Part shown: in pieces, positions 1 to 34,298 of the stretch
Position numbering within the stretch: the stretch's first letter is position 1
Layout of the letters: each line of letters starts with the position of its first letter
Assembly: GCA_036273715.1 (NCBI GenBank)
Contig: DASUHB010000040.1
Location: 1-64,000 of the forward strand
Direction: 5' to 3'
Length of the DNA stretch: 64,000 nucleotides
Source: Gemmatimonadaceae bacterium
Lineage (GTDB): Bacteria; Gemmatimonadota; Gemmatimonadetes; Gemmatimonadales; Gemmatimonadaceae
Translations under genes and position numbers: made by a program
The notes under the pieces: generated by a model
Told to the model about the DNA's origin: nothing
The model's database searches: none
What the model saw: only the letters and a program-made list of their open reading frames with translations

Positions 1-1319
1 ACCGATTCGGCGAACGTGGCCCAGCCTTCGCGCAGCATGTTGGCGGCCGGCCCCGTGGCATTCATGGTCCAGGCGTGCGACACCTCGTGCGCGAAGACGA
101 ACGACGGTCCGCGGACGCCTAACGCCACCAGCTCCTCCGCCTTGCTTCCCGACACGACCGCCTCGTTCATGCGCACGGAGAATCCGCGGGGTCCGATGGC
201 CCGGTCTTCGACGGCGGCGATGTACGGCGGGTTCGGACCGCCGAACCGCGCGTTGAGCACGCTGTCGATCGGCCGCAGCGCTTTGGCCAGCGAATCGTGC
301 GAAAAATGGAACGCGGGAGTCGTGAACGTCTCGAACGTCACGCCGCGCACATCGCTGGTGACCGGGCGCCAGTCGCGATCGTAGATCATGCTCAACAGCC
401 ACGTCGGATACGTGCTGTGGCCGGTTACGGTTCGCACGCCGCCGATGACCGTGTCCCGCTGCGGGAGCGTCGTGGTGAGATAGTACTCAGCCGGCAGATG
501 CACCGTCATCGTGGCGGGGCCTAGGTCGTTGGCGCTGTTGTAATCGAAGAACGGGTGCCAGGCGTCGGTATTGTGGAAGGCGCCGTACGCGGGCAGCGAG
601 TCTCCTGACGACGCAGCGACGGCACGCGATGGACCGCTCGCGTCGCGCAGCGTGTACGACAACGCGAGTTGCGCATGGCCGCGCCGAGGCGCCGCGATCC
701 AGAGCACGCCGCCGCCTAACGTCCAGGCCACGGAGTCGCCATCGTAGCGCAGGCGCGCGATGTGGACATCGTTGTTGAGCCGCACCGCCATGCCGTACTC
801 GGTGCCGACGATCACCGACAACGTGTCTTCGACGTGGATGTCGCGGCCCGGCGCGAGATCGATGTGCAGCACCTGGCCATGGATGAAATTCAGGGTATCG
901 ATGGGCAGCTGCCGCACGATGTGCCACGTGCCGTCGTGCAACGCCGCTTCGTAGAAGCCGGAGAAATGCCGGACGAGATTCGTTTCGTCGCCGCCGTTGC
1001 CTGCCTTGACGATCCCGGTGAGCAAGAGCACCGCGCGCCGGGCATCGCGCCGGACGACGCGCATCGTGCTGGCTTCGCGGGCGAGCTTGCGTTGGGCAGC
1101 GCTGTGCACGACCGCGCGGCCCAACGAATCGGGGTCGATGCTATCGAAGGCGGCCGGCGAGCCGGTGGCGAACCGGCTCAGGAAGAGTGTGCCAAGCGAA
1201 TCCGGAGTCGGCGCGCCCACGCTGCCGGCGGCGACGGGCGCCACGCTGCGCGGCGGCGTCGAGCAGGCGGCAACCGCGAGCGCGACAGAGACAAGCGTCA
1301 GACGTCGAGCGAACCGCAT
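1..1319 (-). CDS. M1-like zinc metallopeptidase lipoprotein, C-terminus cut by window edge
   Basis: Secreted metallopeptidase expected to cleave peptides at the cell surface. About 439 residues are visible. The N-terminus has a lipoprotein signal ending LAVAA-C19. The zinc motif HEVSH lies at residues 411-415 and is followed 15 residues later by the EGWATF glutamate (E431), which should be the third zinc ligand. The body is closely related to the complete paralogue at 12718-14994 (shared DAWHPFF and HEVSH motifs). The ATG at 1319 lies 4 bp after the stop of the family-X gene at 1324, so translation is probably coupled; no clear Shine-Dalgarno is seen. It is the last visible gene of the minus-strand SusC operon. 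M1 assignment is by motif only; the classical M1 spacing is 18 residues, not 15, so an M1-related gluzincin subfamily is also possible. The C-terminal part is lost at the window edge. Confidence 0.85.
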   Translation of the reverse strand, partial: MRFARRLTLVSVALAVAACSTPPRSVAPVAAGSVGAPTPDSLGTLFLSRFATGSPAAFDSIDPDSLGRAVVHSAAQRKLAREASTMRVVRRDARRAVLLLTGIVKAGNGGDETNLVRHFSGFYEAALHDGTWHIVRQLPIDTLNFIHGQVLHIDLAPGRDIHVEDTLSVIVGTEYGMAVRLNNDVHIARLRYDGDSVAWTLGGGVLWIAAPRRGHAQLALSYTLRDASGPSRAVAASSGDSLPAYGAFHNTDAWHPFFDYNSANDLGPATMTVHLPAEYYLTTTLPQRDTVIGGVRTVTGHSTYPTWLLSMIYDRDWRPVTSDVRGVTFETFTTPAFHFSHDSLAKALRPIDSVLNARFGGPNPPYIAAVEDRAIGPRGFSVRMNEAVVSGSKAEELVALGVRGPSFVFAHEVSHAWTMNATGPAANMLREGWATFAES

Positions 1320-1323
1320 GCGA

Positions 1324-2061
1324 TCAGTGCGCCTCGGGCAGTCGTTGCGTGACGCGGCCGTCCGCGTCGAGGAACTGGAGTGACGGCGTGCCGAGCGAAT
1401 CGACCATGAGTTTGATGCGCGGATGCCCTTGGCGATCGGACAGCATGACGATGGATTCCTTGGCCACGCCCTTGCCGATGTATGCGCGCGATATGCTGCC
1501 GAATTCGCCCTTGGCGATCATGTTCTTCCGGAATTCCTGGAAGCGCCGGGTCTTGTCCGGACCGTCCGGCAGCTTGCGGTACACCATGGCGCTCTCGGCG
1601 AAGGCCTGAATGGGCACGTTAGGCCGATCCTGGATGTCGAGCCCGGCTTCGCGCGCGCCGTTCTGATCATGGTACGAGAGGGTGACGGTCTCGTCCTGGT
1701 TGAATTGATCGAACGTGAGTCCCGCTCCGGCGACGTAGCCGTCGGCGGTTTTCCTGCCGTTGAACGTCAGGCCCCCATCCTCGTTGCCTTCATCGTTGAA
1801 GAAGATGACGCCGGCGCCGCGGCCGCCGTCGCCGCTGCGCAATGGATACGATTTCCCGCCGATGACTGGATCGGGCAGCTTGTCGTGACCGGACAGCGTC
1901 ATGCGCAGGGTTCCATCGGCCTCGACGATGTTGATCCGTTGAACATCGATCGTGTCGAATTTCGGGTTGCGCGCCTGTCGGAACGCCACAATCGAAAGTG
2001 CGATCACCAGCGTGGTGGCGCCGTACGCGTATCCTTTCAAGAACCGCAGATCGCCGGCCAT
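1324..2061 (-). CDS. Membrane-anchored family X protein, copy 1 (uncharacterised)
   Basis: I do not recognise a named function. The 245-residue protein has one N-terminal membrane segment (about residues 11-27), then a predicted periplasmic beta-rich domain. Landmarks are RINIVEADGTLRM (43-54), DPVIGGKSYPLRSG (64-77), IFFNDEGNEDGG (86-97) and a C-terminal VDSLG...LQFLD block. Two paralogues with the same landmarks lie at 11902-12675 and 15026-15781, and all three sit directly beside a HEVSH peptidase or an esterase. The start at 2061 is supported by GGAG five bases upstream. It lies between the esterase (ends 2111) and the peptidase (starts 1319). A structural or accessory role for the neighbouring surface hydrolases is inference only. 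Confidence 0.85.
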   Translation of the reverse strand: MAGDLRFLKGYAYGATTLVIALSIVAFRQARNPKFDTIDVQRINIVEADGTLRMTLSGHDKLPDPVIGGKSYPLRSGDGGRGAGVIFFNDEGNEDGGLTFNGRKTADGYVAGAGLTFDQFNQDETVTLSYHDQNGAREAGLDIQDRPNVPIQAFAESAMVYRKLPDGPDKTRRFQEFRKNMIAKGEFGSISRAYIGKGVAKESIVMLSDRQGHPRIKLMVDSLGTPSLQFLDADGRVTQRLPEAH

Positions 2062-2110
2062 GGGAACTCCGTCGCGTAAGTGTGGTCAACGCCTAACTAG
2101 CTGGCGATGC

Positions 2111-3826
2111 TCAGCGGTAGTGCCAGGCTTCGGTGCTCGCGCCGCCGGGCGCATTCCTGGCGATCTGTGCCGCCATCGCGCGCAGCATCTCGCCGGTTGT
2201 CGTTGGGCGGATGCCGTGGCCCTTCATGGGCCGGCCATACTCGAACGTGGCCTCGGCGCGCGGACTGGTCGTGGAATCAAGGAATGCCTGCGCCTTGTAG
2301 ACGGCCATGTTGAGGTAGAAGTTGTCCATGTCGCCGGCGTAGAAGTGCAGCTTGCCGACGAGCTGCGGACCGATCGTCGACCAGTGCGTCTGCATGTACG
2401 CGGTGAGATCGAAGCCGTGGTCGCGCATGTACTCGGCGACGCTGTGATCGATCGCGCCGGTGGCTTTGTCCCACAGCGGCTTGGGATATCCATCCTCGCC
2501 CACCGGACCGTACACTGCTTCCCACGCTTCCTGCTGCTCGGCCGATCGGCCGTGCGAACCGAGCACGGCCTCGAGCTGGCTCAACTGGCGCTCGGTGATG
2601 AGGACCTGGCCGTCGGTGCTGCGGAACATCGGCCGCTCGGGCAGCACCCATTTGGCGTTAGGCGGCGTGAACGCGTTCGGGTCCTTGTAGATGTCGATCA
2701 GCGCCCACTGGTGAAAGTCGATCGGATCCGGGTAGTAGACCCAGGCGCCGCCAAAGAATTCGGGATGATAGACCTGGAGCGCGAGCGACTCCCAGCCGCC
2801 GGTCGAGCCGCCCGACAACACGCGCGCATACGGTTGGTGAATGATGCGAAAGTGCGATTCGATGTACGGAATGAGCTCGGTCAAGATCGCGTCGCCGTAC
2901 GGGCCGTCGTTCGCCGAGTTCACCGCATAGGAATCATCGAAATACGGCGTCGGATGGAGGAACGTCACCATCAGCATCCGCGGAAAATCGTCGGACGTCC
3001 AATCCTGGTAGAGCCTGTAGCCTTCCACGCGGCGAAGATTCACGACCCACGCGCGATGCCCAACGACGTTGGAGTCGGCGGGCTGGACGGCTTCCTCCTG
3101 GAAATGGTACGGTGGCGCGAGGCTGAAGTGATCCTGTTCGTAGTCCACCGGATACGATACGTCGGGATGCTCGTCGTAGCCCTTCGGCAGCAGGACGACG
3201 GCGCCGAGGTACATCGGATGTCCCCAGAATTTGGTCAGTAAGGCACTCTGGATCTTGATGTGCTTGATACACTTGGTGTCCGACGGCACCTGTATCGGGG
3301 GGAGCACGGTGGCGAGCGACAGATGCGTCGGGGATGTCGATCGCTTGCCGATGTGCACGCGCACGATGCCGCTGACGAGGTTGCCGGGCGAGTCGCCGTA
3401 CTGCTGTCCTTCCCACTGGTCCAGGTGCACCCAGATGGTGTGTCCATCGGCGCGGTGCACTTGCGTGTAGACGTTCATCACCGCCTGGGCGTAGTAGTCG
3501 CCCGGCGGCACGTCGCCCAACGTGGCGAATGGGAAGCCGTGCGTCGCGCCATCGAGCCGGGCGCTGGTGTTAGGCGTCAGTTGCGACACGTCGGCGCCGA
3601 ACACCGGACCGTTGGCGCCGAGGGCGCCGCCCTGGAACCGCGGCGCCGGCGTGCTGTCGTCAGACAGGAACAGCAGGACGCGTCCAGTGATCGGGCCCTG
3701 GTGCGCGGAAGCCGGGAAGGAGACGTCGAACACCGGGCCGCGTTGGGCGGCTGCCGGAAATGCGACGGCAACGGCGGCGCAGGCGGCAAGCATCGTGCAG
3801 CGACGGGCGATGATGGAGTCAGCCAT
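2111..3826 (-). CDS. Secreted alpha/beta-hydrolase of the esterase D / Fes-like type, copy 1
   Basis: Predicted periplasmic or surface serine hydrolase (putative esterase family, PF00756-like). From the ATG at 3826 it has 571 residues, with a signal peptide ending PAAAQ. The N-terminal third is a beta-sandwich-like region (YYAQAVMNVY, DGHTIWVHLDQ). The hydrolase domain starts near LLTKFWGHPMYLGAVVLLPKGY. The nucleophile is S341 in GGSTGG, and PMKGHG near the C-terminus may carry the catalytic histidine. A longer reading to 3892 exists, but the added residues precede the signal peptide, and ATG 3832 is also possible. The close paralogue is at 15778-17481. Upstream lies a 116-bp palindrome that separates it from the BNR gene. 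The substrate is unknown; the locus suggests esters or peptides imported through SusCD. Confidence 0.85.
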   Translation of the reverse strand: MADSIIARRCTMLAACAAVAVAFPAAAQRGPVFDVSFPASAHQGPITGRVLLFLSDDSTPAPRFQGGALGANGPVFGADVSQLTPNTSARLDGATHGFPFATLGDVPPGDYYAQAVMNVYTQVHRADGHTIWVHLDQWEGQQYGDSPGNLVSGIVRVHIGKRSTSPTHLSLATVLPPIQVPSDTKCIKHIKIQSALLTKFWGHPMYLGAVVLLPKGYDEHPDVSYPVDYEQDHFSLAPPYHFQEEAVQPADSNVVGHRAWVVNLRRVEGYRLYQDWTSDDFPRMLMVTFLHPTPYFDDSYAVNSANDGPYGDAILTELIPYIESHFRIIHQPYARVLSGGSTGGWESLALQVYHPEFFGGAWVYYPDPIDFHQWALIDIYKDPNAFTPPNAKWVLPERPMFRSTDGQVLITERQLSQLEAVLGSHGRSAEQQEAWEAVYGPVGEDGYPKPLWDKATGAIDHSVAEYMRDHGFDLTAYMQTHWSTIGPQLVGKLHFYAGDMDNFYLNMAVYKAQAFLDSTTSPRAEATFEYGRPMKGHGIRPTTTGEMLRAMAAQIARNAPGGASTEAWHYR

Positions 3827-3888
3827 GAGCATGACGAATCGAGAGCGGAAAGCGACGCGCGTGCGTGCGTCGAGAAAATTTGAGGCTG

Positions 3889-4004
3889 GCATCTACGCTC
3901 ATGAAGACACGGGCACAGCACAGACACGACGGACGCTGCACGGATCGATCGGTGCGGTGTCCGTCGTGTCCGTGCTTTGTCCGCCTGGTCATGAGCGTAG
4001 ATGC
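3889..4004. repeat. 116-bp imperfect palindrome between operon genes
   Basis: The outer arms GCATCTACGCTCATGA (3889-3904) and TCATGAGCGTAGATGC (3989-4004) are perfect inverted copies of 16 bp. Pairing continues inwards for about 46 bp per arm with roughly eight mismatches, and the centre carries a second near-palindrome (GCACGGATCGATCGGTGC). It lies between the stop of the BNR gene (4017) and the start of the esterase (3826), both on the minus strand, so any operon transcript would carry a very long hairpin here. It could attenuate expression of the downstream genes, protect the upstream mRNA, or be a small non-autonomous mobile element. Confidence 0.85.
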
Positions 4005-4016
4005 GGCGCTGCGCCA

Positions 4017-7000
4017 TCACTGCGCATGGATGCCGGCAACGATGGGCGATGCGCCGGCCCTGTTCAACGCGGCATTGATCGCCTCGAGGCCGCCTAACGA
4101 GACGCGGAGCCGGCGCAGCTGCGCGGCCAGTCGCGTGGCGAGCTCGGTGAACACGGCGTCATCCTGTGCCGTCGGCCGCGCGTTCCCTTCCCCGGTGTAG
4201 GCCGCGAGCTCGGCCAGTTTGTCGTTGAGGCCGATGGGATAGTTGAGCGGGTCTTCGCTGGCGCGGGTGCGAACCTGGTAGATCGATTGTTCGATGTTCG
4301 ACAACGAGTCCTGGAGCGCGGCAGCGCTTTCTTTGGCGTCGCCGAGCTGCGACGCGCGCGCCTCGAGCTGCGCGCGCACGCTGCGAATCGATTTCACGGC
4401 GTTGTTCGCGGCGCTGATCGTGTCGGCAATATGTGTGAGCAGCGCAAACTGCGCGGCGAGATCCGCCTGCGTCGCATTCGATCGGGGATCGGGGCGCAGC
4501 ACGAACCACTGCGTTTGGACGTGGCCGTTTGCCGTGAGACGCACGCCATAGCGGCCCGGGACGACGCGCGGCCCGACCGGATTCCCGGCCCACAACACCA
4601 TGCCTTTGAACGATGCCGGATCCGGCATGCGCAGGTCCCACGCGAACGTGTTCAGCCCTGCCTTGTTGGGCGCGACCGGCTGGCGCCGCACCGGGACCTC
4701 CACATCTTCGACGCCGCTCGAGGTATCGGCAGCAGTTGCCGCTTTGCTGTGGAACGAGCGGAGGACGCGGCCGCCGGCGTCGAGAAAGTCGAGGCTGATG
4801 CTGTCGTTAGGCGAACGCAACCAGTAGTACACGATCGCGCCCGAGCGCGGGTTGCCCGCTTTGGGCGGACCGGCGTCGTGTTGCGCTCCGTTGGTCGGGC
4901 CGCCGGAGAACATGGCGCGATAGACCGGACGCGGCGCGAACAAGTATGCATCGCGCGCAAGGATGGCGGGCGTGAGCTGGCGGAGCGGCGAGATGTCGTC
5001 CAACACCCAGAATCCGCGTCCGTGCGTGGCGGCGATGAGGTCGCCGTTCTTGATCGCGAGATCGTGGACCGGAACGATGGGCAGATTGCGGCGGAGCGAC
5101 TGCCAGTGTCCACCATCATCGAACGACACCCAGATGCCGCGCTCCGTGCCGACGTACAGCAGGCCGCGGCGCTCGGGATCTTCCCGGATCACGCGCGTGA
5201 ATTCGGTGGACGGGATGCCGGCCGCGATCGACGTCCAGTGTTTGCCGTAGTCCGTGGTCTTGTACAGATACGGACGGAGATCATCCATCTGGTAGTGATT
5301 CGCCGCGACGTACGCCGTGCCGGCATCGAAGTGCGACGGCTCGATGATCGAGATCCGCATCCACTCCGGCAGACTCGGCGGCGTCACGTTGGTCCATGTC
5401 GCCCCGCCGTTGCGGGTGAGATAAATCATGCCGTCGTCGGAGCCGGTCCAGATCTCGTTGGCCGCGACCGGCGATGGGGCGATGGCGAAGATCGTTCCGT
5501 AGTATTCGACCGACGTCTGGTCCTTCGTGATCGGACCGCCCGACGGGCCTAACGTGCGCGGGTCGTGTCGCGTGAGATCGGGGCTGATCACCTGCCAGCT
5601 GTGTCCGTCATTGCGCGAACGGAACAGCACCTGTGCCCCGGCGTAGAGCGTGTTCGAATCACGGGGCGACATCGCCAGCGGGTACGTCCACTGAAAGCGG
5701 TACTTGATGTCGCCGGCGCTGTAGCCCATCGGATTGTCGGGCCAGGGGCTGACCACGGTCATCTGATGCGTGCGGCGATCGAGGCGCGTCAGGCGGCCGT
5801 CGTACGAGCCGGCGAAAACGACGTTAGGCGAATCGGCGCGCGCGACGATGTAGCCGCTTTCGCCGCCGCCCACGTCCTGCCACTGGCCGATGTCGATGCC
5901 GCCATCCCAACGCGTAGGACCGCAGAGCGTGCCGGCATCCTGCTGGGCGCCGCACACCTCGTACGGGAAGTCGTTGGTCGTTTCGACGTGGTAGAACTGC
6001 GCCGTCGGTTGCGTTTCCGGCAGCCACGAGCGGCCGCCGTTGATCGAGACCGTGGCCCCGCCGTCGTTGGCCTCGGCCATGCGCTGCGGATCGTTGGGGG
6101 CGATCCACAGGTCGTGGTTGTCGGTGGATGGCGTCGCGATCGCGGTGTCGAACTTCACGCCGCCGTCATCGGACCGGAACACGTGCACGTTGAGCACGTA
6201 CACGCGATTCGAGTCCTTCGGGTCGGCGAAGATGCGCGAGAAGTACCACGCGCGCTGGCGGAGCTTGCGTTCGTCGTTGGTGCGGTGCCAGCTGGCGCCG
6301 GCGTCGTCGGAGCGGAACACGCCGCCCGAGTCGGCTTCGACGAGCGCCCAGACGCGGTTGGGCGCGGCGGCCGAGACCGCGAGCCCGATGTTGCCGATCA
6401 CTCCGTTAGGCAGCCCGGGCGCGTGCGTGAGCTCGGTCCAGTGTTCGCCCGCATCGGTGGACTTGAAGATGCCGCTGCCGGCGCCGCCCGACGACAGCAG
6501 CCACGGCGTGCGGCCGGCCTGCCACAGCGCCGCGTAGAGAATGTCGGGGTTGGACGGATCGAGCACGAGCTCGATCGCGCCGGTGGAGTCGTTCCGAAAG
6601 AGCGTATTGCGCCAGTGCGCGCCGCCGTCTGTCGACTTGTAGATCCCGCGCGCGGAGTCCGGCGCCCAGACGTGGCCCAGGACCGCGGCGTAGACGACGT
6701 TCGGGTCGCGGGGGTCGACGCGCACGCGCGCGATCTGCCGCGAGTCGCCGAGTCCGGCGAAGTGCCACGTCTTGCCGGCATCCGTCGTCTTGAACATCCC
6801 GTCGCCGTGCGAGACGTTGCCGCGGATGTCGTACTCGCCGGTGCCGACGTAGACGATGTCGGGGTTGGACGGGCTGACGGCAATGGCGCCGATGGTCCCG
6901 CCGAAATACTTGTCGGTGACGGGATTCCACGTTTCACCACCGTCGGTCGTCTTGAAGACGCCGCCGCCGGTGGTGCCCATGTAGTACTCGTTAGGCCTGG

Positions 7001-7223: not shown

Positions 7224-7233
7224 TGGCCTCCGC

Positions 7234-8478: not shown

Positions 8479-8489
8479 GGTGGTGTCTC

Positions 8490-11400
8490 TCAGAACTCGA
8501 GGTTGAGCCGCACAACGAAGCGGCGGGTCTGCGGCACGGTGAATTCCTCCGTTGTCGCAAATTGCAATGAGCCTTCACTGCGTTCGGTGTTGGAGAGCAT
8601 CTCCGGATCGAAGCCCGTGAACTTGCTGCTCTTCCACAGCGCGAGGTTCCGGCCGGCGAACGTGATCGATGCCGCGGTCGCGTGCATGCGCGCGGCCAGA
8701 TCGTTAGGCAGCGAGAGCGTGGCCGACAACTCCTGCAGCCGGATGAAATCGGTCGGTTGGACGTAGTGATCGAGCACGAGCGGGACCGGTGTTCCGTCGG
8801 CCGTTTGGAACGGCCCGAAGCGCTCGATGAACTGCGCCTTCGTATAGCCGCCTTTACCCGCCGGCAGGTTCGTGCCCGCCGAGGTAAAGGTGAGGTCCTG
8901 CAAGAGCGGTGTGAGGTTCAGGATCTTGCCGCCGCTCTGGCCGCTGAACGACGCGTACAGGCGCAAGTTGCGGAACAGGGTAACGGTGTTGGCGAAGTTG
9001 GCCTGGAAGGTCGGGAACTGCGGCCCATCGAAGACCGGTGTGTTGGTCACCGTTGCAAAACCGGCAGCCGTGTCGACCTTGATGATCTTGCTCGAGTACC
9101 ACGCGGAGAGCGGCTGCCCAACGACGTAGCGGAGCGTGAGGTCGGGGCTGATCTCGCTCACATTGGGGATCGTGATGTCGCCCAGGCTGAGCAGACGGTT
9201 CTTCAGCGTATTGGCGGTGAACGTCATGTCCCACGTCGCCGTCTTGTTGCTGATCGGCGTCGCGCGGAGAAGCAGCTCGAGACCGCGGTTGTCGACGCTG
9301 CCCGCGTTGACGAACGGATTCGCGAGGAACGCCAGCGACGGGGCGAGCGGCTCCTGGAGCAGCAGATCTTTGGTCTTCTTGTCGAAGTAGGTGAGCTCGA
9401 CGCCGGCGCGATCCTGGAAGAAGCCCGCGTCGAATCCAGCCTCGAACTCGGTCCCGCGTTCCGGCTTGAGATGCGGGTTGCCGGGGCTCAGCTGGATGAG
9501 GCCAGGCCCGACGCCGCCGGACGGCGTGACAAACGGAAACGGCTCATACGTGCGGAGTGACGCGCCGGGATCGGGCGCGCGACCGGTCGTGCCGTAGGCC
9601 GCCCGCAGCCGGAACGTCGAGACGACCGACGACAGCGACTGCCAGAACGGCTCCTGCGACATCACGTACGAGGCGCCGACCTTGGGCAGGAAGAACGCGC
9701 CGTAGTCCTGGCCGAACGACGAGTTCTTGTCGACGCGTGCGCCTAACTGGAGGAACAGCGTCTGGCCGAACGCGAGACCTTCCTGCGCCAGGAAGCCCAA
9801 CGATTTCGACTGCGCGAACGTCTGGTGCGACTCGCTCGACGCGGCCGACGACACGAGGTTGGACGAATTGTCGGCCAGCCCGATGCCGATGCCGAGCAGG
9901 TTGTTGTTGACGGTGTTGATGTACTGGCTGCCGAAGGAGAGGTCGGACGCGATGTGCCCGTCGCTGCCGAACTTCAGTTTGATGTCGCCGAGGTAGTCGA
10001 TCGTATAGATATGGATCGGATTCTGCACGTCCTCGACGTAGCCGTTGGCCTGGTCGCCCGTGTACCAGTTCCCGTTGTTTTTCGGGAAGAACGTGAACCC
10101 TTCGGTGGACGACAGGTCGCCGCCGATCGTTAGGCGGTTGGTGAGCCAGCTGAACGGGTTGTAATGGGCCGTGGCCGTGGGCGTGAAGCGCAGGGTGGTG
10201 AGCTTGTCCTGGATCGCCTCCAATCCTTCGATCGGCGTGCTCGTGCCGCCGGACCGCGTGCCGTCGGGGTTGACGGTGACGGCGAATGGACTGGAGAGAA
10301 AGTAGCCCTGCGTCAGGTAGCCGTACGTGCCGTCGTCGCCCTGCGGAATACGATAGGCATTGTAGGCGAGGCCCACCGATGCGTCGAAGCTCAACTCCGG
10401 GTTCACCACCCAGTTGAAGCTCGAGCGTCCGGTGCGGCGATAGTAGTAGTTGCTCGCCTCGGTGCCGAGTTCGTTGCTCACGCTGCCGGACACGAAGTAG
10501 CCGAATGAGTCGCCGCCGCCGCGCGCGCTGTAGTCGACCGACTTGAGGTTGCCGTTGCGGAACACGCCGGCATCGACGAGCGGATTGGCGGAAATGACGC
10601 TGCCCACCGGCTTGTTGAGGCACAGATCGGCGCCGCCGGGCGCGGTATCGGACGCGCTGCACGTGCCGAACACCGACAACGGCGTGAAGTTGGGCTTCAC
10701 CTGGTCGTATTCGACGCCGATGCTCTGCGTGAACTTGTGCGAGCCTAACTGGCCCTTCTTGGTGATGATCTGGATCACGCCCGCTGACGCATCGGCGCCG
10801 TAGAGCGTGGCCGCAGCGGGGCCCTTGACGACTTCGATGCTCGCGATGTCGTCGGGGTTGATGTCGTTGAGCGCGGTCACGGTCTGGCCGCCCAAGCCTT
10901 CGAGGCCGTGGAACCCGCTACCGACGTCTTCGCGCGCGCCGCTCTCGACGCGGACGCCGTCGATGAACACGAGCGGCGCGTTCGACAGCGAAATGGATGC
11001 GGGACCGCGGATCTGGATGCGCGGCGCCGCGCCGATCGTCCCGGAGGACGAGGTCACGTTGACGCCGGCGACGCGCCCTTGCAGCACGTCGGTAACATTG
11101 ACGATCGGCGCCTTGGACGTGACATCCGATGCGTCGATCGACGTGGCCGGCGCGCCCTGCGCTTCGCGCGTCTGGTTGCCCGCCGTGCCAGTGACGACGA
11201 TCGCTTGCAGCTCGGTGGCGCTGATCCGGAGCGCGAAATCGGCGGTGACGGCGCCATCCTCGGCCATCGTGATCTGCTTCGTTTGCGGCGCGTAGCCGAT
11301 GCGCCGCACGACGAGCGTGTACGAACCGGCGGGCACGCGGGCGATGCGGTAGGTGCCGTCCTCGCCGCTGATGCCGCCTAACTCGGTGCCTTCGAGGCGC

Positions 11401-11624
11401 ACGCCGGCGGCGGCCAGCGGCTCACCCGTCTTGACGTCGGTGATCTTTCCGGAGATGGTGCCGGGCGCCCGCCGTTCGGTTAGGCGCGGCGTGGGCGCGC
11501 CGGTCGCGAACCCGGGCGACGACTCGAGCGCGGCCGCCGTCGCCGGCTGCTGCGCCGGCAACGACTCGGCGACCATCGTGCCGCCCGCGAGCAGCGAGAG
11601 TGCGAGCGCTATGCGGAGACCCAT
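8490..11624 (-). CDS. SusC/RagA-like TonB-dependent outer-membrane transporter
   Basis: Outer-membrane active transporter, energised by TonB, probably for peptides or oligosaccharides bound by the SusD partner. From ATG 11624 it has 1044 residues: signal peptide (to LPAQ), a carboxypeptidase-regulatory-like domain (ISGKITDVKTGEPL, ending TLVVRRIGY), then a plug domain (VTDVLQGRVAGV, PLVFIDGVRV, SIEVVKGPAAATLYGADAS), then a 22-strand type barrel ending in RLNLEF with the usual terminal Phe. A GTG start at 11639 would be longer, but AGGA eight bases before the ATG favours 11624. It is the first gene of the minus-strand operon, reading away from the shared regulatory region. Confidence 0.93.
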   Translation of the reverse strand: MGLRIALALSLLAGGTMVAESLPAQQPATAAALESSPGFATGAPTPRLTERRAPGTISGKITDVKTGEPLAAAGVRLEGTELGGISGEDGTYRIARVPAGSYTLVVRRIGYAPQTKQITMAEDGAVTADFALRISATELQAIVVTGTAGNQTREAQGAPATSIDASDVTSKAPIVNVTDVLQGRVAGVNVTSSSGTIGAAPRIQIRGPASISLSNAPLVFIDGVRVESGAREDVGSGFHGLEGLGGQTVTALNDINPDDIASIEVVKGPAAATLYGADASAGVIQIITKKGQLGSHKFTQSIGVEYDQVKPNFTPLSVFGTCSASDTAPGGADLCLNKPVGSVISANPLVDAGVFRNGNLKSVDYSARGGGDSFGYFVSGSVSNELGTEASNYYYRRTGRSSFNWVVNPELSFDASVGLAYNAYRIPQGDDGTYGYLTQGYFLSSPFAVTVNPDGTRSGGTSTPIEGLEAIQDKLTTLRFTPTATAHYNPFSWLTNRLTIGGDLSSTEGFTFFPKNNGNWYTGDQANGYVEDVQNPIHIYTIDYLGDIKLKFGSDGHIASDLSFGSQYINTVNNNLLGIGIGLADNSSNLVSSAASSESHQTFAQSKSLGFLAQEGLAFGQTLFLQLGARVDKNSSFGQDYGAFFLPKVGASYVMSQEPFWQSLSSVVSTFRLRAAYGTTGRAPDPGASLRTYEPFPFVTPSGGVGPGLIQLSPGNPHLKPERGTEFEAGFDAGFFQDRAGVELTYFDKKTKDLLLQEPLAPSLAFLANPFVNAGSVDNRGLELLLRATPISNKTATWDMTFTANTLKNRLLSLGDITIPNVSEISPDLTLRYVVGQPLSAWYSSKIIKVDTAAGFATVTNTPVFDGPQFPTFQANFANTVTLFRNLRLYASFSGQSGGKILNLTPLLQDLTFTSAGTNLPAGKGGYTKAQFIERFGPFQTADGTPVPLVLDHYVQPTDFIRLQELSATLSLPNDLAARMHATAASITFAGRNLALWKSSKFTGFDPEMLSNTERSEGSLQFATTEEFTVPQTRRFVVRLNLEF

Positions 11625-11901
11625 GGTACCGTTCCTCACTTGATGTTGGGCAAGGGTGGAACCTCGTGGACGGGTGAACCGGACTGGGATGAGCGGACGG
11701 ACGACGTGCGGTAGGTGCCTAGGACCAACGGAACGACGGGACAGCCCAACAGCGCGCAGTCTTTCGTTATTGATACGGACAAATTACTATTGGTCCGGAC
11801 AAATGATAACGCCCGCCCTTCCGACGCGCCAGACTGACGTTTCACCAGGCCCTTCTCCCTGCTTCCCCTCCCCCCAACTGCCGCCGCCGGAGTCACTTAC
11901 C
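11625..11901. promoter_or_regulatory. Divergent regulatory region of the SusCD / family X-peptidase locus
   Basis: This 277-bp gap separates the SusC operon (minus) from the X-peptidase-X-esterase operon (plus). Near its middle is the only AT-rich stretch (about 11766-11810). It carries a 9-bp direct repeat CGGACAAAT at 11776-11784 and 11796-11804, 20 bp apart, which is two helical turns on the same face. The second copy is embedded in a near-palindrome around TCCGGA (TTGGTCCGGACAAA). This fits an activator or repressor site controlling both operons. No exact promoter boxes can be assigned by eye. Confidence 0.5.
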
Positions 11902-12675
11902 ATGGACCAGCAGCTCCAACGCGAAATCCGGAGGCTCCGCCGCCTCAATGCGGTCACCCTCGGCGCACTCATTATAGTAGTTGCTGCCGCGTTCACCGGG
12001 CTCGTCCGTCCTACCGCCTCGGCCGCCAAGTTCGACGTCATCGACGTCGGCCGGATCAACATCCGTGAGCCCGACGGAACCATCCGGCTCGCGATTTCGA
12101 ACAAGCAGCATTTCCCCGATCCGGTGATCGACGGGAAGACTTACCCGCTCCGCAGCGGCGCCAAACCGGCCGGCATGATCTTCTTCAACGATCAGGGCGA
12201 CGAAGATGGCGGCCTGATCTGGAACGGGAAGAAACTCGCCGACGGATTCGAAGCCGGCGCGTCGCTGACGATGGACCAGTGGCGGCAAGACCAAACGGTT
12301 CAGCTCTCCTACGAGGGAGGTCCCAAGCACACCGATTGGGTCGGCCTCCGCGTTATCGATCGACCGGAGAAGCCGATGGCGCCCATGCTCGATCGCGCGA
12401 TGCGAGCGATGCAACTGCCCGCCGGCGCGGCGCGCGACAGCGCGATGCGCGCGGTACGACAGTTCGCGATCGACAGCGGCCTGACACCGGCCTCGCGCAT
12501 CCTCATCGGGAAGGGCGCCGAGAAGGCCGCGACGGTCCGGTTGAACGATCCGGCCGGGCGCACCCGCATCCTGCTCAGCGTCGACTCGCTCGGCGCGCCG
12601 TCGATCCAGCTCCTCGATTCGTTGGGCCGCGTCACCTACCGCATTCCGTCCGACAGCGAACGCGGCGCGCACTGA
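11902..12675 (+). CDS. Membrane-anchored family X protein, copy 2 (uncharacterised)
   Basis: 257 residues from the ATG at 11902. The frame is open to 11656, but the membrane-anchor pattern fits the internal start. A basic N-terminus (REIRRLRRL) precedes one membrane segment at about 16-35. The periplasmic part shows RINIREPDGTIRLAIS, FPDPVIDGKTYPLRSG, MIFFNDQGDEDGG, VIDRPEKPM and the C-terminal block VDSLGAPSIQLLDSLGRV. These landmarks match the genes at 1324-2061 and 15026-15781. It opens the plus-strand operon, 42 bp before the peptidase. Function is unknown; its constant pairing with the HEVSH peptidases suggests a shared complex. Confidence 0.85.
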   Translation: MDQQLQREIRRLRRLNAVTLGALIIVVAAAFTGLVRPTASAAKFDVIDVGRINIREPDGTIRLAISNKQHFPDPVIDGKTYPLRSGAKPAGMIFFNDQGDEDGGLIWNGKKLADGFEAGASLTMDQWRQDQTVQLSYEGGPKHTDWVGLRVIDRPEKPMAPMLDRAMRAMQLPAGAARDSAMRAVRQFAIDSGLTPASRILIGKGAEKAATVRLNDPAGRTRILLSVDSLGAPSIQLLDSLGRVTYRIPSDSERGAH

Positions 12676-12717
12676 CGCCACCATTCCGCCATCCCGACCC
12701 CGCACAGGCCCGTTCTC

Positions 12718-14994
12718 ATGCCCAAGGCATCACCCGTGTTCCCGCTGGCCGCGCTCCTGGCGTTAGGCGCCGCCCCGCTCGCCGCGCAGGCAGCGGCGCC
12801 GGCTCCGCCGCGCTTCCCGACCACCGTCGAGATGCCGGCGCCGGTGCAGACCGGCGCTCCATCGCCGGGCGCGCTGGTGCGCCTCGTGCTGGCGCGGTTC
12901 GCCACCGGCACGCCGGAAGCGTTCGACAGCGTCTACCCCGATCCGTTAGGCAGAGCGGTGGTCCAGGGTGCTGCCCAACGCAAGCTGCTGCGCACACCGG
13001 GACCCGGACGCGTCGTCTGGTCCAACGCCTCGCGGGCCGTGCTCCTCATCACCGGCACAGTGCACGAGGGACGGTCCACGGGCATCGAAACCGGCTCCGA
13101 TGAAACCAACCGCGTGCGGCGCCTGTCGGGGCTGTACGAAGCGCATCGCAACGGCGGCACCTGGCTGCTCACGCGCCAGATTCCGTTCGACACCCTCAAC
13201 TACATTCGCGCGCAGGTGCTGCACGTCGACATCCAGCCGGGTCGCGTGAGCCGCGTGGTGGACACGCTCACGATCGACCCGGGCAGCCCGTACGGATTCG
13301 CGACGCGCCTCAACAACGCCACCGAGCTGCACACGGTCCGGTTGAACGGCGCGACCGTCCCCTATTCGTTAGGCGGCGGGGTCCTGTGGGTGGACACGCG
13401 GGGCCGGCACGCGCCGGCGCACTCCCAGCTCGTGCTCTCCTACGCGATCCCGGCCCAACGCCAGGCGAAGCCCGCGACAGGCGACTCGGCAAACGTGGCG
13501 CCGGCTATGTCTCCCGATACCATGCCCGCGTACGGCGCCATGAACAACACCGACGCCTGGCATCCGTTCTTCAACTACGATAGCGGGAACGACTTCAGCC
13601 AGCTCACGGTCACGGCCACCATCCCCGCGCAGTATCGGCTGACGACGTCGGTCCCGCAAACGGAAGGCGTCAAGGGCGGCGTGCGGACGGTGCACGGCAC
13701 GAGCATTCATCCGCAGTTCTTGCTCGCGTTGCTCTACGACCGCGACTGGACGCCCGTCACGCAATCGGTGAACAAGGGCGAGTTCACGCTCGAGACGTTT
13801 TTCGCGCCCGGCTTCCATTTCTCGCCGGACACGATCGCCAAGACGGCCGGCTTCGTGTACCACGTGCTCGTCCCGCGGTTCGGCGAACCGCAGGCGCCGT
13901 CGAAGTACCTGGCGGTGGTGGAGGATCGCCAGTTAGGCCACACCGGCTGGCAGGTCCGGATGAACAACGCCGTCATCTCCGGCGACAGCGCGACGGTGCT
14001 AGACGAACCGGCACTCGGGCCGTCGTTCGCGTTCGGCCACGAGGTGTCGCACGGCTGGACGATGAATTCGTCCGGCCTCGCCGCCAACTTCCTCCAGGAA
14101 GGCTGGGCCACGTTCTGCGAATCGCTCCTGTTAGGCGCAGCTTACGGGAAGGACACCGAGCGCGCGTTCTGGGAGCGCATGCGCACCTCCTACGTGACCG
14201 GCCTCGACCGCGCCGGCTTCCTGGGCGGGTTCGAGGGCAAGCAGAGCATTCTCGACAACCCCGACAACGGCCGTATCCACTACTCGAAGGGGTCCTGGAT
14301 CCTGCACGAGCTCGACTACGTGCTCGGCGATTCGACGTTCGATGCGGGGATGCGCGCGTTCATCGCCACCAACGGGCAGGGCCCGCACGGATATCCCGAG
14401 TTCATCGCCGACATGTCGCGCGCGGCCGGTCGCGATCTGACGTCGTTCATCATGCCCTGGCTCGCCGGAACGTACATTCCCGACGTCGATGCCCGCATGG
14501 ACGGCTCGTCGTTAGTCGTCACGCAGTCGCAACCCGACGTGCTGTTCGATTTGCCGTTGGACGTCGCGATCGTGTCCGGTGCCGATACGGTGCGCAAAGC
14601 GGTGCACCTGACGTCGCGCGCCGACACGGTTCGGTTGGACGACGCCGCCGCGGTGACGCGGGTGCTGGTGGATCCCGACCATCACTTTCTCCTGCGCCGG
14701 CACTGGGGCGAGACCGAGCGCTTCACCCTGCACTCGCCCAGCGCCAAGAGCGTCGAGCTGGCCGGCAACTTCACGGCGCGGCCCATCCCGGCCACCCGCA
14801 CCGGCGACGACTGGACGGTGGAGATTCCGATGCCGGAGGGCCGCTACCTCTTCCTCTGGCGCGTGGACGGCAAGAGCCCGTCGGACGCGGAGGCGATCGC
14901 CGCCGTCAAGGCATCGTCGAACGATTCGACGGCCCTCGCCGGCATCCGCATCGTCCGCCCGTTAGTCCGCCTCGATGATCGCGACGCACGCTGA
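12718..14994 (+). CDS. M1-like zinc metallopeptidase with C-terminal Ig/CBM48-like domain
   Basis: 758-residue secreted metallopeptidase; signal peptide about residues 1-27 (ends AAQAAAPA). The region 60-400 is the substrate-binding beta portion typical of M1-like enzymes (DAWHPFFNYDSGND, LLALLYDRDW). The zinc site is H441-E-V-S-H445, and E461 in QEGWATF is the likely third ligand, spaced 15 residues from the second His rather than the usual 18. After the helical domain (YSKGSWILHELD) comes an E-set domain at about 665-740 (SVELAGNFT, YLFLWRVDG) resembling glycogen-binding CBM48/AMPK-beta modules. The truncated paralogue is at 1-1319. The substrate is probably peptide; the role of the terminal domain is not known. 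Confidence 0.88.
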   Translation: MPKASPVFPLAALLALGAAPLAAQAAAPAPPRFPTTVEMPAPVQTGAPSPGALVRLVLARFATGTPEAFDSVYPDPLGRAVVQGAAQRKLLRTPGPGRVVWSNASRAVLLITGTVHEGRSTGIETGSDETNRVRRLSGLYEAHRNGGTWLLTRQIPFDTLNYIRAQVLHVDIQPGRVSRVVDTLTIDPGSPYGFATRLNNATELHTVRLNGATVPYSLGGGVLWVDTRGRHAPAHSQLVLSYAIPAQRQAKPATGDSANVAPAMSPDTMPAYGAMNNTDAWHPFFNYDSGNDFSQLTVTATIPAQYRLTTSVPQTEGVKGGVRTVHGTSIHPQFLLALLYDRDWTPVTQSVNKGEFTLETFFAPGFHFSPDTIAKTAGFVYHVLVPRFGEPQAPSKYLAVVEDRQLGHTGWQVRMNNAVISGDSATVLDEPALGPSFAFGHEVSHGWTMNSSGLAANFLQEGWATFCESLLLGAAYGKDTERAFWERMRTSYVTGLDRAGFLGGFEGKQSILDNPDNGRIHYSKGSWILHELDYVLGDSTFDAGMRAFIATNGQGPHGYPEFIADMSRAAGRDLTSFIMPWLAGTYIPDVDARMDGSSLVVTQSQPDVLFDLPLDVAIVSGADTVRKAVHLTSRADTVRLDDAAAVTRVLVDPDHHFLLRRHWGETERFTLHSPSAKSVELAGNFTARPIPATRTGDDWTVEIPMPEGRYLFLWRVDGKSPSDAEAIAAVKASSNDSTALAGIRIVRPLVRLDDRDAR

Positions 14995-15025
14995 GCGCCG
15001 CGTTTTCCCTTCACTCCGAGACCAC

Positions 15026-15781
15026 ATGATACGCGAATCGTTCACGCCGCTCACACGATGGCTCGGCTTCCGGACGTACGTCGTCGCGTCCACGAGCATC
15101 ATCGGCGTTCTGTCGCTTGCCGCGTTCACGAAGGCGTCGGCGCACACGCGCTTTCAGGAAATCGACGTCGAGCGCATCAATGTCGTCGAGCCCGACGGCA
15201 AGCTGCGTATGACCATTTCCGACGCCGCGCGCTCGCCCGGCTGGGTGTTTCACGGCAAAGTGGTGCCGGGCCGGCCCAAGGGCGCGGGCATGATCTTCTT
15301 CAACGACGAAGGTGAAGAGGACGGCGGCATCGGCTTCGGCGGACGCACCGTCGATGGCAAGGTGCACGCCGACGGCGGCATTGCATTCGATCACTACGAG
15401 TCCGACGAAACCGTCACGCTGCGCTACTCGCAAAACGATAAGCGCACGCAATCCGGACTCATGATCACGGATCGTGCGGACGTGCCGATTCTCCACGTCA
15501 TCGAGAAGCAGGATTCGCTTCGCAAGATGCCCGCCGGTGCGGGACGCGACTCGGCCATGAAGGCCTTCGTGGAGAACGGCGGCCATCCGTTAGCCGCGCG
15601 CCGGTTGTTCGCCGGACGCGACGCCGACCAGAGCTCGTTGGTCAGCCTGAACGATCCGCACGGCCGTCCGCGGTTGCGCCTCATGGTCGACTCGACGGGC
15701 GCGGCCAGCATCCAATTCCTCGACACCCTGGGTCGCGTGAAGCGAACCATCACGGCCGATTCGCTCGGAGGATCGCGATGA
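15026..15781 (+). CDS. Membrane-anchored family X protein, copy 3 (uncharacterised)
   Basis: 251 residues from ATG 15026. An alternative in-frame ATG at 14975 would overlap the peptidase stop and put polar residues before the anchor, so the shorter form is preferred. One membrane segment lies at about 17-34 (YVVASTSIIGVLSLAAF). The family landmarks are present: RINVVEPDGKLRMTIS, MIFFNDEGEEDGG, DRADVPIL, and the C-terminal VDSTGAASIQFLDTLGRV. The DPVI-GK-YPLRSG block is replaced by a divergent segment (WVFHGKVVPG). Its TGA overlaps the ATG of the esterase by 4 bp (ATGA), so translation is coupled. Confidence 0.83.
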   Translation: MIRESFTPLTRWLGFRTYVVASTSIIGVLSLAAFTKASAHTRFQEIDVERINVVEPDGKLRMTISDAARSPGWVFHGKVVPGRPKGAGMIFFNDEGEEDGGIGFGGRTVDGKVHADGGIAFDHYESDETVTLRYSQNDKRTQSGLMITDRADVPILHVIEKQDSLRKMPAGAGRDSAMKAFVENGGHPLAARRLFAGRDADQSSLVSLNDPHGRPRLRLMVDSTGAASIQFLDTLGRVKRTITADSLGGSR

Positions 15782-17481
15782 ACACCCGCACGTGGGAAAG
15801 GCGCGCTTGCCTAACGGCAGCCGCGCTCATGGTCGCCGGCGCCAGTGCCTTCGCGCAGTCGGCGCGGTTCGACGTGACGGTCGCGCCTTCGGCGCACGAC
15901 GGTCCGCTCACCGGGCGCCTGATCGTCGCCGTCAGCAAGGTGGAGAAGCCTGAGCCGCGGCTCATGATCTCGCCGCGCGGGCCGGCAATTTTCGGCGTGG
16001 ATCTCAACCAGCTGCCGGCCGGCCATACGGCCGTGGTCGACAATTCCGCGTCGAGCTATCCGATGAAGCTCTCCGCGCTGCCGCCCGGCGATTACTACGT
16101 CGAAGCGGTGGTGAACGTCTATCAGCAGTTTCATCGCAGCGATGGCCACACGATCTGGGTGCACATGGGCGACGGCCGCGTGGAGTTCTTCAACTTCGCC
16201 GGCGGCAACTTGTACAGCGACGTCCAGAAAGTGCACATCGACGGGCACAGCACGGTGCATCTCACCGTGACCCATGTGATTCCCGTCGAGCCGCGGCCCG
16301 CGGACACGGAGTGGCTCAAGCACGTGAAGATTCAGAGCCAACTGCTCACGAAGTTCTGGGGGCACCCGGTGTACATCTATGCCGATGTGCTCCTGCCCAA
16401 GGGATACGCCGAGCACCCCGACACGTACTACCCGCTGCTGTTTCCGTTAGGCCACGCCCCCGATCCCTTCTCGTTCAATCCCGACTCGGCGTCGGAACGC
16501 CGGGGCGGCGAGCAGAATCCGTTGGAGCTGCGGCGCGGCGCGCGCATCAACCCGAACTCGGGGCTCGAAAGCGGCTACGACTTCTACAAGCAGTGGGTAT
16601 CGGACAGCTTCCCGCGCGTGATTGCGGTGACGCTCGAGCAGGCGACGCCGTACTTTGCCGATTCGTACTCGACGAATTCGGCGAACGACGGCCCGTACGG
16701 CGACGCCTTCGTGCAGGAAGTGGTTCCCTACCTCGAGCAGCATTTTCGCATCATTCCCAAGCCGTACGCGCGGCAGGTGGAAGGCGCGTCCACGAGCGGA
16801 TGGCAGACGCTGGCGCTCGTGCTGCAGCATCCCGATTTCTTCGGCGGCGGATGGGTGCTGCAGCCGGATCCCATCGACTTCAGGCACTACCAGCTCACGA
16901 ACATCTACACGGATACCAGCGCGTTCGAGATTCCCAACGGGATGTTCACGACCACGGAGCGGCAGTTCCAGCGCACGGTGGAAGGCCAGGTGGTGCTGAC
17001 GACCCGCGAGCTGAGCCGCTTCGAAGATGTGTTAGGCAGCCACGGACGTTCGGGCTATCAGCTCGAGGCCTGGGAAGCCGTGTACGGCCCGGTGGGCGCG
17101 GACGGCTACCCGGTGCCGGTGTGGAACAAGCAGACGGGGCTGATCGACCACCAGACGGCGGCGTACATGCGCGATCACGGCTACGACCTCCGCGACTATG
17201 CCCAACGCAACTGGCCGACGTTAGGCCCAAAGCTGGCCGGCAAGCTCCACTTCTTCGCCGGCGACATGGACAATTATTACCTGGACCTCGCCGTCTACGA
17301 CTTCCAGAACTTCGTGGACAGCACCACGAATCCGCATTCGGATGCCGACTTCACATACGGCCGTCCGATGAAGGGCCACGGATGGCACTCGTATACATGG
17401 GCCGAGATGGTGCGGAAGATGGCGGACGCGGTGAAGCGGGAGGCTCCGGCGGGAGAATCGACGGCCGCGTGGAATTACTGA
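15778..17481 (+). CDS. Secreted alpha/beta-hydrolase of the esterase D / Fes-like type, copy 2
   Basis: 567-residue exported hydrolase, paralogue of the gene at 2111-3826. The signal peptide ends ASAFAQ. Shared landmarks are DGHTIWVHMGD, LLTKFWGHPVYIYADVLLPKGY, NDGPYGDAF, HPDFFGGGWV, and the C-terminal HFFAGDMDNYYLDLAVY and PMKGHGW. The expected nucleophile S338 sits in GASTSG (copy 1 has GGSTGG), so the second small residue of the elbow differs. It is the last gene of the plus-strand operon and is translationally coupled to family X copy 3. It ends 16 bp from the convergent propeller gene, with no obvious terminator. The natural ester substrate cannot be read from the sequence. Confidence 0.85.
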   Translation: MNTRTWERRACLTAAALMVAGASAFAQSARFDVTVAPSAHDGPLTGRLIVAVSKVEKPEPRLMISPRGPAIFGVDLNQLPAGHTAVVDNSASSYPMKLSALPPGDYYVEAVVNVYQQFHRSDGHTIWVHMGDGRVEFFNFAGGNLYSDVQKVHIDGHSTVHLTVTHVIPVEPRPADTEWLKHVKIQSQLLTKFWGHPVYIYADVLLPKGYAEHPDTYYPLLFPLGHAPDPFSFNPDSASERRGGEQNPLELRRGARINPNSGLESGYDFYKQWVSDSFPRVIAVTLEQATPYFADSYSTNSANDGPYGDAFVQEVVPYLEQHFRIIPKPYARQVEGASTSGWQTLALVLQHPDFFGGGWVLQPDPIDFRHYQLTNIYTDTSAFEIPNGMFTTTERQFQRTVEGQVVLTTRELSRFEDVLGSHGRSGYQLEAWEAVYGPVGADGYPVPVWNKQTGLIDHQTAAYMRDHGYDLRDYAQRNWPTLGPKLAGKLHFFAGDMDNYYLDLAVYDFQNFVDSTTNPHSDADFTYGRPMKGHGWHSYTWAEMVRKMADAVKREAPAGESTAAWNY

Positions 17482-33668: not shown

Positions 33669-34298
33669 CTAACGGAGGAGCCGCGGGCTGCCGCGGATGA
33701 ACCGCGCCTGGTCGAGCTCCTTCAGAATGAAATCGGCGAGGTCCGCACGCGAGAGCATGGGGACCGGCGCGATCGTCCTGATATTCTCACCCACCCGGTA
33801 TCGACCGGTTTGGGGGCCCGTCGTCAGCTTCGGTGGCCTGACGATGGTCCAATCGAGTGGGCTCTGTCTCACCAGTTCTTCCTTGACCTCGTGATCGCGG
33901 ATTTCGTGACGGAGCGGAATGGGCGCGATGTATCGGAGGATGAATCCCACGGCGTGCCGACTGTCGTGCACACCGATGAAGGACACGTAAATCAGCCGGC
34001 GCACACCTTGCGTCTCCATAGCGCTCAGGATGTTCCGAATTCCGGCAATGACGTCGGCGTCGTGTTTGAGCGGCGCAGCGACGCCGAGGGCGCAGACGAC
34101 GTGGTCGTGTCCCTCGACCGCGGCGTGGACGGCGCCGGCGTCGGCGACGTTCCCGGTTACGATCGAGACCGATTCCGCCGCAGCGCGCAGCTTGTCCGGC
34201 CGCCGGACAAACGCCGTCACTTGCCGCGCGCGTGCCGCCGCTTGTCGAATCACTTCCTGGCCGGTCCGACCCGATGCGCCGAAGACGAGCAGACGCAT
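33669..34298 (-). CDS. NAD(P)-binding atypical short-chain dehydrogenase-like protein
   Basis: 209 residues. The dinucleotide loop GASGRTGQEV starts at residue 7, followed by VTAFVRRPDKL and SIVTGNVAD, typical of the NAD(P)H-binding 'NmrA/atypical SDR' group (biliverdin reductase B-like). LDWTIVRPPKL is the conserved C-terminal motif. It lacks the classical YxxxK active site, so it may be a reductase or a redox sensor. The TAG stop lies in a CGTTAG core. It is preceded by the LytTR remnant on the same strand. Confidence 0.85.
   Translation of the reverse strand: MRLLVFGASGRTGQEVIRQAAARARQVTAFVRRPDKLRAAAESVSIVTGNVADAGAVHAAVEGHDHVVCALGVAAPLKHDADVIAGIRNILSAMETQGVRRLIYVSFIGVHDSRHAVGFILRYIAPIPLRHEIRDHEVKEELVRQSPLDWTIVRPPKLTTGPQTGRYRVGENIRTIAPVPMLSRADLADFILKELDQARFIRGSPRLLR

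What the first reader, a model, noticed from the sequence alone, without database searches (positions are those of the whole stretch)
1..17481. Mirrored peptidase / family X / esterase modules around a SusCD pair
The minus arm reads SusC, SusD, BNR, esterase, X, HEVSH peptidase. The plus arm reads X, HEVSH peptidase, X, esterase. Each arm has the same three families, and they meet at an intergenic region with a direct repeat. Peptidases and esterases are paralogous across the arms and X occurs three times. This looks like a specialised uptake locus that has duplicated its degradation module, likely for a peptide or acyl-peptide polymer, unlike classical glycan PULs (no glycosidase is present). 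I know of no described system of this composition.
Basis: partly seen in the sequence, partly recalled or inferred. Interest (0 to 1): 0.75.

Follow-up and report, generated by a model that had tools for sequence, protein, structure and literature searches.

The report
GntR-linked SusCD peptide-uptake locus
This soil bacterium (family Gemmatimonadaceae) carries a conserved gene set around an outer-membrane SusCD nutrient importer that appears to share one regulatory DNA switch with genes for amino-acid transport and breakdown, so it is probably a system for feeding on peptides or similar amino-acid-derived compounds rather than on sugars.

Summary
Minus arm: SusC, SusD, sortilin/BNR, esterase, X, M1-like peptidase. 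Plus arm: X, M1-like peptidase, X, esterase. The arms meet at an intergenic direct repeat. Linkage is conserved in genus g1 and in a second genus (g21), where the set continues on the same contig into amino-acid ABC-transporter, dipeptidase, C-S lyase, aminotransferase and deacylase genes and a GntR/HutC-type regulator. The repeat is a conserved tandem operator (ATTNGTCCGGACAAAT). Copies of it in the window's own genome precede exactly that second gene set, the regulator's own operon and a fourth X gene. Best explanation: one GntR-controlled regulon for uptake and breakdown of an amino-acid-derived (peptide-like) substrate, split over several loci in this genome. X is a widespread membrane-anchored protein (at least 508 homologous loci in many phyla) that the Pfam, NCBIfam and PDB searches did not recognise; it is predicted to be an OspA-like single-layer beta-sheet and occurs mostly outside this locus. 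The substrate and the role of X are unknown, and no binding or expression data exist.

The parts
3..1319 (-). M1-like gluzincin peptidase (pepB), lipoprotein-type signal (VAAC), truncated by the contig end at window position 1
   Evidence: 55% identical to pepA; orthologues complete in G004 (L135) and partial in G005 (L133)
1324..2061 (-). family X copy 1 (N-terminal TM helix plus periplasmic beta domain)
   Evidence: groups with X2 and a g21 X in the tree
2111..3892 (-). estA, PF00756 esterase, conserved GGSTGG / PDP / KGHG motifs
   Evidence: PF00756 27.4 vs 22; alignment; outside the X-linked esterase clade
3889..4004 (.). 116-bp near-perfect palindrome (hairpin -84 kcal/mol), a dispersed repeat of this genome, not part of the conserved locus
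   Evidence: estA and BNR only 2 bp apart in G004
4017..7223 (-). secreted sortilin-Vps10/BNR beta-propeller protein
   Evidence: PF15902 92.5 bits
7234..8478 (-). SusD-like lipoprotein (LASC)
   Evidence: position, 65-97% identical orthologues in genera g1 and g21; PF07980 below cut-off
8490..11639 (-). SusC/RagA TonB-dependent transporter
   Evidence: TIGR04056 416.5 vs cut-off 368
11768..11810 (.). conserved divergent operator: two imperfect palindromes ATTGATACGGACAAAT (11769-11784) and ATTGGTCCGGACAAAT (11789-11804), 20 bp apart
11902..12675 (+). family X copy 2
   Evidence: AlphaFold model pLDDT 91.6
12718..14994 (+). M1-like gluzincin peptidase (pepA), Sec signal, HEVSH-x15-E, YSKG; weak C-terminal CBM48/E-set-like match
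   Evidence: PF01433 40.5 vs 27.7; alignment; own AlphaFold model poor
14975..15781 (+). family X copy 3
15778..17481 (+). estB, PF00756 esterase, GASTSG / PDP / KGHG motifs
   Evidence: PF00756 23.6 vs 22; in the Gemmatimonadota X-linked esterase clade

Best explanation
Window 1-17481 is the outer-membrane and periplasmic half of one GntR/HutC-controlled regulon for taking up and breaking down an amino-acid-derived, probably peptide-like (possibly acylated or sulfur-containing) substrate. Proposed steps: SusCD imports the substrate across the outer membrane (inferred from family). Secreted M1-like peptidase(s), PF00756 esterase(s) and an M38-type dipeptidase (encoded elsewhere in the genome) cut it outside or in the periplasm (inferred). 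A polar-amino-acid ABC transporter brings products inside (inferred). A deacylase, an aminotransferase and a cystathionine-beta-lyase-type enzyme use them (inferred). A UTRA-domain GntR protein, encoded with the ABC ATPase, probably holds the operators at 11769-11804, at its own operon, at the aminotransferase operon and at a fourth X gene, and releases them when a pathway metabolite binds (site conservation and shared gene neighbourhood shown; binding inferred). X is an inner-membrane-anchored periplasmic single-layer beta-sheet protein that repeatedly accompanies the esterase. Its role is unknown; my best guess is a scaffold or substrate hand-off protein.
For: Linkage: SusD orthologues (65% identity or more) occur in 8 genomes, genera g1 and g21 only. 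Where the contig reaches far enough they lie beside SusC and X, usually with peptidase or esterase; in G050 and G070 SusD sits on a separate contig from X. In G025 and G050 the same contig continues into ABC permeases, SBP, cystathionine beta-lyase, TPR protein, AstE/DoeB-like deacylase, aminotransferase, GntR, GlnQ and amidohydrolase. In G032 (genus g28) GntR-CBL-X and esterase are adjacent. Operator: 43-bp block conserved, core also in g21. In the own genome the only four palindromes with 2 or fewer mismatches are SusC|X2, the fourth X gene, the GlnQ-GntR|amidohydrolase region and the aminotransferase operon. G004 has four sites, three confirmed at the same genes by tblastn and the X site by position. 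g21 also has sites at the aminotransferase operon and upstream of the esterase. 18 sites in 8 SusD genomes vs 14 in 112 others. GntR and SusD co-occur 7/1/1/170 over 179 family genomes, p = 6e-11 without phylogenetic correction. Sites fit GntR/HutC dre rules: G-4 conserved, G-5 often T in one half (PMC4333415). The amidohydrolase is closest in PDB to Cc2672, an L-Xaa-L-Arg/Lys dipeptidase (PMC11342369). The SBP hits amino-acid binding proteins. X in L080 lies between a dipeptidase-like amidohydrolase and an M19 dipeptidase in a TonB cluster.
Against: No substrate, binding or expression data. No palindrome was found in the GlnQ|amidohydrolase region of g21, nor upstream of GntR or X in G032. 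In G003 the peptidase lies on a contig without X, esterase or SusCD. G050 has no peptidase between SusC and X. The peptidase lacks the GxMEN aminopeptidase motif by position (VRMN[N/D/E]). The sortilin/BNR protein and the GT/GDE genes inserted in the C53 cluster are not explained. g1 and g21 are only two genera of one family, so co-occurrence counts are not independent.
Confidence: 0.66

Rival explanations
1. A duplicated degradation module: the two arms arose by copying one peptidase-X-esterase block.
For: The same three families in both arms, 41-55% identical.
Against: The three family trees disagree: estA and estB are not sisters, pepA is sister to the g21 peptidase, X1 and X2 are together but X3 apart. 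Genus g21 has a one-sided arrangement with three X, one peptidase and one esterase. Gene order within the arms also differs.
Confidence: 0.06
2. A carbohydrate-type locus (glycopeptide or acylated glycan) in which PF00756 proteins act as feruloyl/acetyl esterases and the BNR protein as a glycosidase.
For: SusCD pairs usually serve glycans (established knowledge). PF00756 includes feruloyl esterases; PDB sequence hits 7xrt/7xrv are ferulic acid esterases. Weak CBM48-like C-terminus of pepA. A GDE-type glycosidase and a glycosyltransferase sit in the C53 cluster in g1.
Against: No recognised CAZyme passes a cut-off in 1-17481. The GT and GDE genes are absent between aminotransferase and GntR in g21. 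Co-regulated genes are for amino acids and peptides.
Confidence: 0.17
3. A siderophore or other small-ester uptake system (PF00756 includes enterochelin esterases).
For: Weak matches to enterochelin esterase PRK10439 (13.7 bits, cut-off 222).
Against: SusCD-type receptor, peptidases and amino-acid genes; the operator is GntR/HutC-like, not a Fur box; no siderophore ABC transporter or biosynthesis genes seen.
Confidence: 0.05
4. Operator sites and the GntR cluster are coincidental; the SusCD locus is independently regulated.
For: Sites at C53 and C73 carry two mismatches; binding untested.
Against: Sites are conserved in other species of the genus and at matching genes in g21; reversed-pattern control gives 0 sites in the own genome at 2 mismatches.
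Confidence: 0.08

Closest known systems
RagAB peptide importer of Porphyromonas gingivalis (SusCD-type)
   Same: SusC/SusD-type TonB-dependent pair implicated in protein/peptide uptake (PMC11817032 abstract)
   Different: Different phylum; here linked with M1-like peptidases, PF00756 esterases, family X and a GntR/HutC regulon. Sequence closeness to RagAB and peptide binding not tested
Polysaccharide utilisation locus (PUL)
   Same: SusCD pair with secreted hydrolases and a dedicated regulator in one conserved locus
   Different: No recognised glycosidase or lyase; regulator is GntR/UTRA, not HTCS or ECF sigma; linked catabolic genes are for amino acids and peptides
GntR/HutC regulons (HutC histidine utilisation; NagR/DasR amino-sugar)
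   Same: UTRA-domain GntR regulator encoded within its regulon; imperfect palindromic operators with conserved G-4 (PMC4333415)
   Different: Central CCGG; regulon includes a SusCD outer-membrane system
M38 L-Xaa-L-Arg/Lys dipeptidase Cc2672 (3MTW)
   Same: Closest solved relative of the co-regulated amidohydrolase
   Different: Specificity not established here

Membership tests
SusCD-type TonB uptake pair | SusC/RagA subfamily TonB receptor | tested here: met
   TIGR04056 416.5 bits vs 368.25
SusCD-type TonB uptake pair | SusD-family lipoprotein adjacent to SusC | tested here: inconclusive
   Adjacent lipoprotein with conserved linkage, but PF07980 16.9 bits, below 23.1
Classical PUL | linked carbohydrate-active enzymes | tested here: not met
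   No CAZyme passes a cut-off in 1-17481; none recognised among the scanned genes of the contiguous g21 locus
Peptidase family M1 | M1 domain with HExxH...E and catalytic Tyr | tested here: met
   PF01433 40.5 vs 27.7; HEV[SA]H-x15-E in all 7 members; HYxKG motif where the sequence reaches it; spacing shorter than my recollection of the usual x18
Peptidase family M1 aminopeptidase | GxMEN exopeptidase motif upstream of HExxH | tested here: not met
   VRMN[N/D/E] at that position in the members aligned (judged by position)
PF00756 esterase family | domain score and Ser-Asp-His motifs | tested here: met
   27.4 and 23.6 vs 22; motifs conserved between estA and estB; catalytic role of the residues not tested
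GntR/HutC (UTRA) regulator | GntR HTH plus UTRA domain | tested here: met
   PF00392 70.7 bits and PF07702 75.7 bits for G000:C53:12453-13217
GntR/HutC operator (dre-like) | imperfect palindrome, G-4 conserved, G-5 often T in one half-site | tested here: met
   13 of 14 sites G at -4, G or T at -5 against PMC4333415
GntR/HutC operator (dre-like) | bound by the regulator | not testable with these tools
   needs EMSA or footprinting
RagAB-type peptide importer | peptide binding and import | not testable with these tools
   needs biochemistry
OspA/MORN-like single-layer beta-sheet (family X) | matching fold | tested here: inconclusive
   VIA-align Z 10-11 to engineered OspA, rmsd 3.4-6.1 A, 132-151 residues; Foldseek TM at most 0.39 among the ten best rows

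The most novel reading that the evidence does not exclude
A SusCD system dedicated to an amino-acid conjugate or acyl-peptide (for example an S-conjugated or N-acylated peptide), controlled from a GntR/HutC operator, in which family X, a so far unnamed membrane-anchored beta-sheet protein found in many phyla, is a general periplasmic partner of peptide-processing esterases.
Probability: 0.25. Interest if true: 0.72.

Novelty: new variant of a known kind. Interest (0 to 1): 0.56.

Why it matters
SusCD loci are usually read as glycan systems. This would be a complete predicted outer-membrane-to-cytoplasm utilisation regulon for amino-acid-derived substrates in a poorly cultured soil phylum, with a testable operator and regulator. 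It also gives a first neighbourhood-based lead for family X, which has at least 508 homologous loci and was not recognised by the Pfam, NCBIfam or PDB searches.

Tried and rejected
Block duplication of the arms: rejected on trees. X as SusCD-specific: rejected, at least 508 loci in many phyla with diverse neighbours. Tally of X's same-strand neighbours elsewhere: no single conserved partner; a few HTH and LytTR two-component contexts and amidohydrolases. Fold search for X gave only OspA/MORN-like single-layer sheets. AlphaFold of pepA was poor (pLDDT 54), so no fold search was made. Sister SusCD clade (about 40% identity) has no shared neighbours with this locus apart from occasional BNR genes. 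Literature searches found no paper on Gemmatimonadota SusCD/peptidase loci. PDB entries 4z9n and 8z91 gave no ligand information in papers. No sigma-70-like promoter found by the simple scan of the intergenic region.
Full report
OBSERVATION. The window is the start of a 72,413-bp contig (G000:C40) of a 4.34-Mb, 98.7% complete genome. The ORFs reported are there: minus strand pepB 3-1319 (cut by the contig end), X1 1324-2061, estA 2111-3892, BNR/sortilin 4017-7223, SusD 7234-8478, SusC 8490-11639; plus strand X2 11902-12675, pepA 12718-14994, X3 14975-15781, estB 15778-17481. X has no Pfam or NCBIfam hit, nor do 60 further homologues beyond isolated weak matches. Identities across arms are 53% (esterases), 55% (peptidases) and 41-48% (X).

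LINKAGE ELSEWHERE. Among 119 relatives X occurs in 29, the esterase in 61, the pepA-type peptidase in only 6 (genus g1 and G025 of genus g21; a fragment in G070), and the close SusD orthologue in 8, all g1 or g21. A family-wide search of 179 genomes gave the same 8. In g1 the same divergent layout recurs in G004, G005 and G001 as far as the contigs reach. In g21 the layout is SusD-SusC(-) | pepA-X-X-X(+), esterase(-) | BNR2(+) (G025); G050 lacks pepA at that place. In G003 the peptidase is on a separate contig without the others. X lies next to an esterase in 13 of the 29 X-bearing genomes by my count, far above chance (rough binomial), and also in Pyrinomonadaceae, Aminicenantes, Acidiferrales and a gammaproteobacterium.

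NOT A BLOCK DUPLICATION. The trees disagree among gene pairs. pepA is sister to the g21 peptidase and separate from pepB. estB is inside a 100%-supported clade of Gemmatimonadota esterases, mostly X-linked, while estA falls outside even the Acidobacteriota and Aminicenantes X-linked esterases. X1 and X2 group with a g21 X, X3 does not. The second BNR gene that follows pepB in G004 and G005 groups with the BNR gene of the g21 locus. The two arms are better described as an assembled locus with old paralogues.

OPERATOR. Between SusC and X2 a 43-bp block (11768-11810) is identical in three genomes of the genus and differs at one base in a fourth while the flanks drift. Its core is kept at the same place in g21. 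It contains two imperfect 16-bp palindromes 20 bp apart. With 2 mismatches or fewer from ATTTGTCCGGACAAAT the own genome has just four sites: this one; one 103 bp upstream of the fourth X gene (C73:53756); one between a GlnQ-type ATPase/GntR operon and a divergent amidohydrolase (C53:13995); and one 30 bp upstream of an aminotransferase operon (C53:8475). The reversed-pattern control gave none at this level. G004 has four corresponding sites; three were confirmed at the same genes by tblastn and the X site by position. Sites are also conserved upstream of the aminotransferase operon in G025, G050 and G070, and upstream of the esterase in g21. Counts are 18 sites in the 8 SusD genomes vs 14 in 112 others. 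The motif matches published rules for GntR/HutC sites (PMC4333415). That GntR binds them is inferred.

SECOND HALF OF THE SYSTEM. In G025 and G050 the contig continues from BNR2 to two polar-amino-acid ABC permeases, a substrate-binding protein, a cystathionine-beta-lyase-type enzyme (TIGR01324 495 bits vs 366), a TPR protein, an AstE/DoeB-like deacylase, an aminotransferase, the GntR regulator, GlnQ, and a divergent amidohydrolase. In the window's genome this set is at C53:282-15385, with a glycosyltransferase and a GDE-type gene inserted. The amidohydrolase is closest in the PDB to Cc2672, reported as an L-Xaa-L-Arg/Lys dipeptidase (PMC11342369). GntR orthologues are confined to g1, g21 and G032 (g28); GntR and SusD co-occur in 7 of 8 cases each over 179 genomes, Fisher p = 6e-11 without correction for phylogeny. 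In G032 the regulator and the C-S lyase directly precede X, with the esterase close by.

FAMILY X. Predicted with high confidence (pLDDT 91.6, 61 sequences) as an N-terminal membrane helix followed by an extended beta-sheet with a helical insert. The best structural matches are engineered OspA proteins (Z 10-11, rmsd 3.4-6.1 A, 7-11% identity), a resemblance of fold type only. In L080 X sits in a TonB receptor / DUF885 / amidohydrolase / X / M19 dipeptidase cluster. In L108 it sits beside amidohydrolases, an M16 peptidase and an aminotransferase related (54%) to the one above. Other X genes sit beside LytTR two-component systems.

INTERPRETATION. Shown: conserved gene linkage, conserved operator sites at matching genes, co-occurrence with GntR, different histories of the paired genes. 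Inferred: that GntR binds the sites, that the substrate is amino-acid-derived, and the order of steps. The chemical nature of the substrate and the function of X remain open. A sulfur-containing or acylated peptide is suggested by the C-S lyase, deacylase and esterase, but only weakly.

Noticed in passing
window 3889-4004: 116-bp near-perfect palindrome (58-nt arms, -84 kcal/mol) between estA and BNR, absent at this spot in G004 (2-bp gap); 98 BLAST matches in this genome, i.e. a dispersed hairpin/REP- or MITE-like family.
   Followed up: partly
window contig G000:C40:63944-65593 (across and past the window end), G000:C64:19493-21172, G000:C7:5865-7496: Three further esterase paralogues of this family in the same genome; the C64 one lies beside a TonB/SusC-like receptor.
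   Followed up: partly
L152 (Chryseobacterium plasmid), L066, L073: X genes directly upstream of histidine kinase / LytTR-type response regulator pairs, suggesting a second, regulatory context for X.
   Followed up: partly
window 34232-37639 and 58649-61276: MacB/FtsX-type permease genes scattered in the window; not linked to the finding.
   Followed up: no
G000:C73:52922-53653 and site C73:53756: Fourth X gene carrying its own copy of the operator but lying away from SusCD, esterase and peptidase.
   Followed up: partly
G050:C76:3092-3290 (L056): g21 genome in which the peptidase is missing between SusC and X while the double operator is retained.
   Followed up: no
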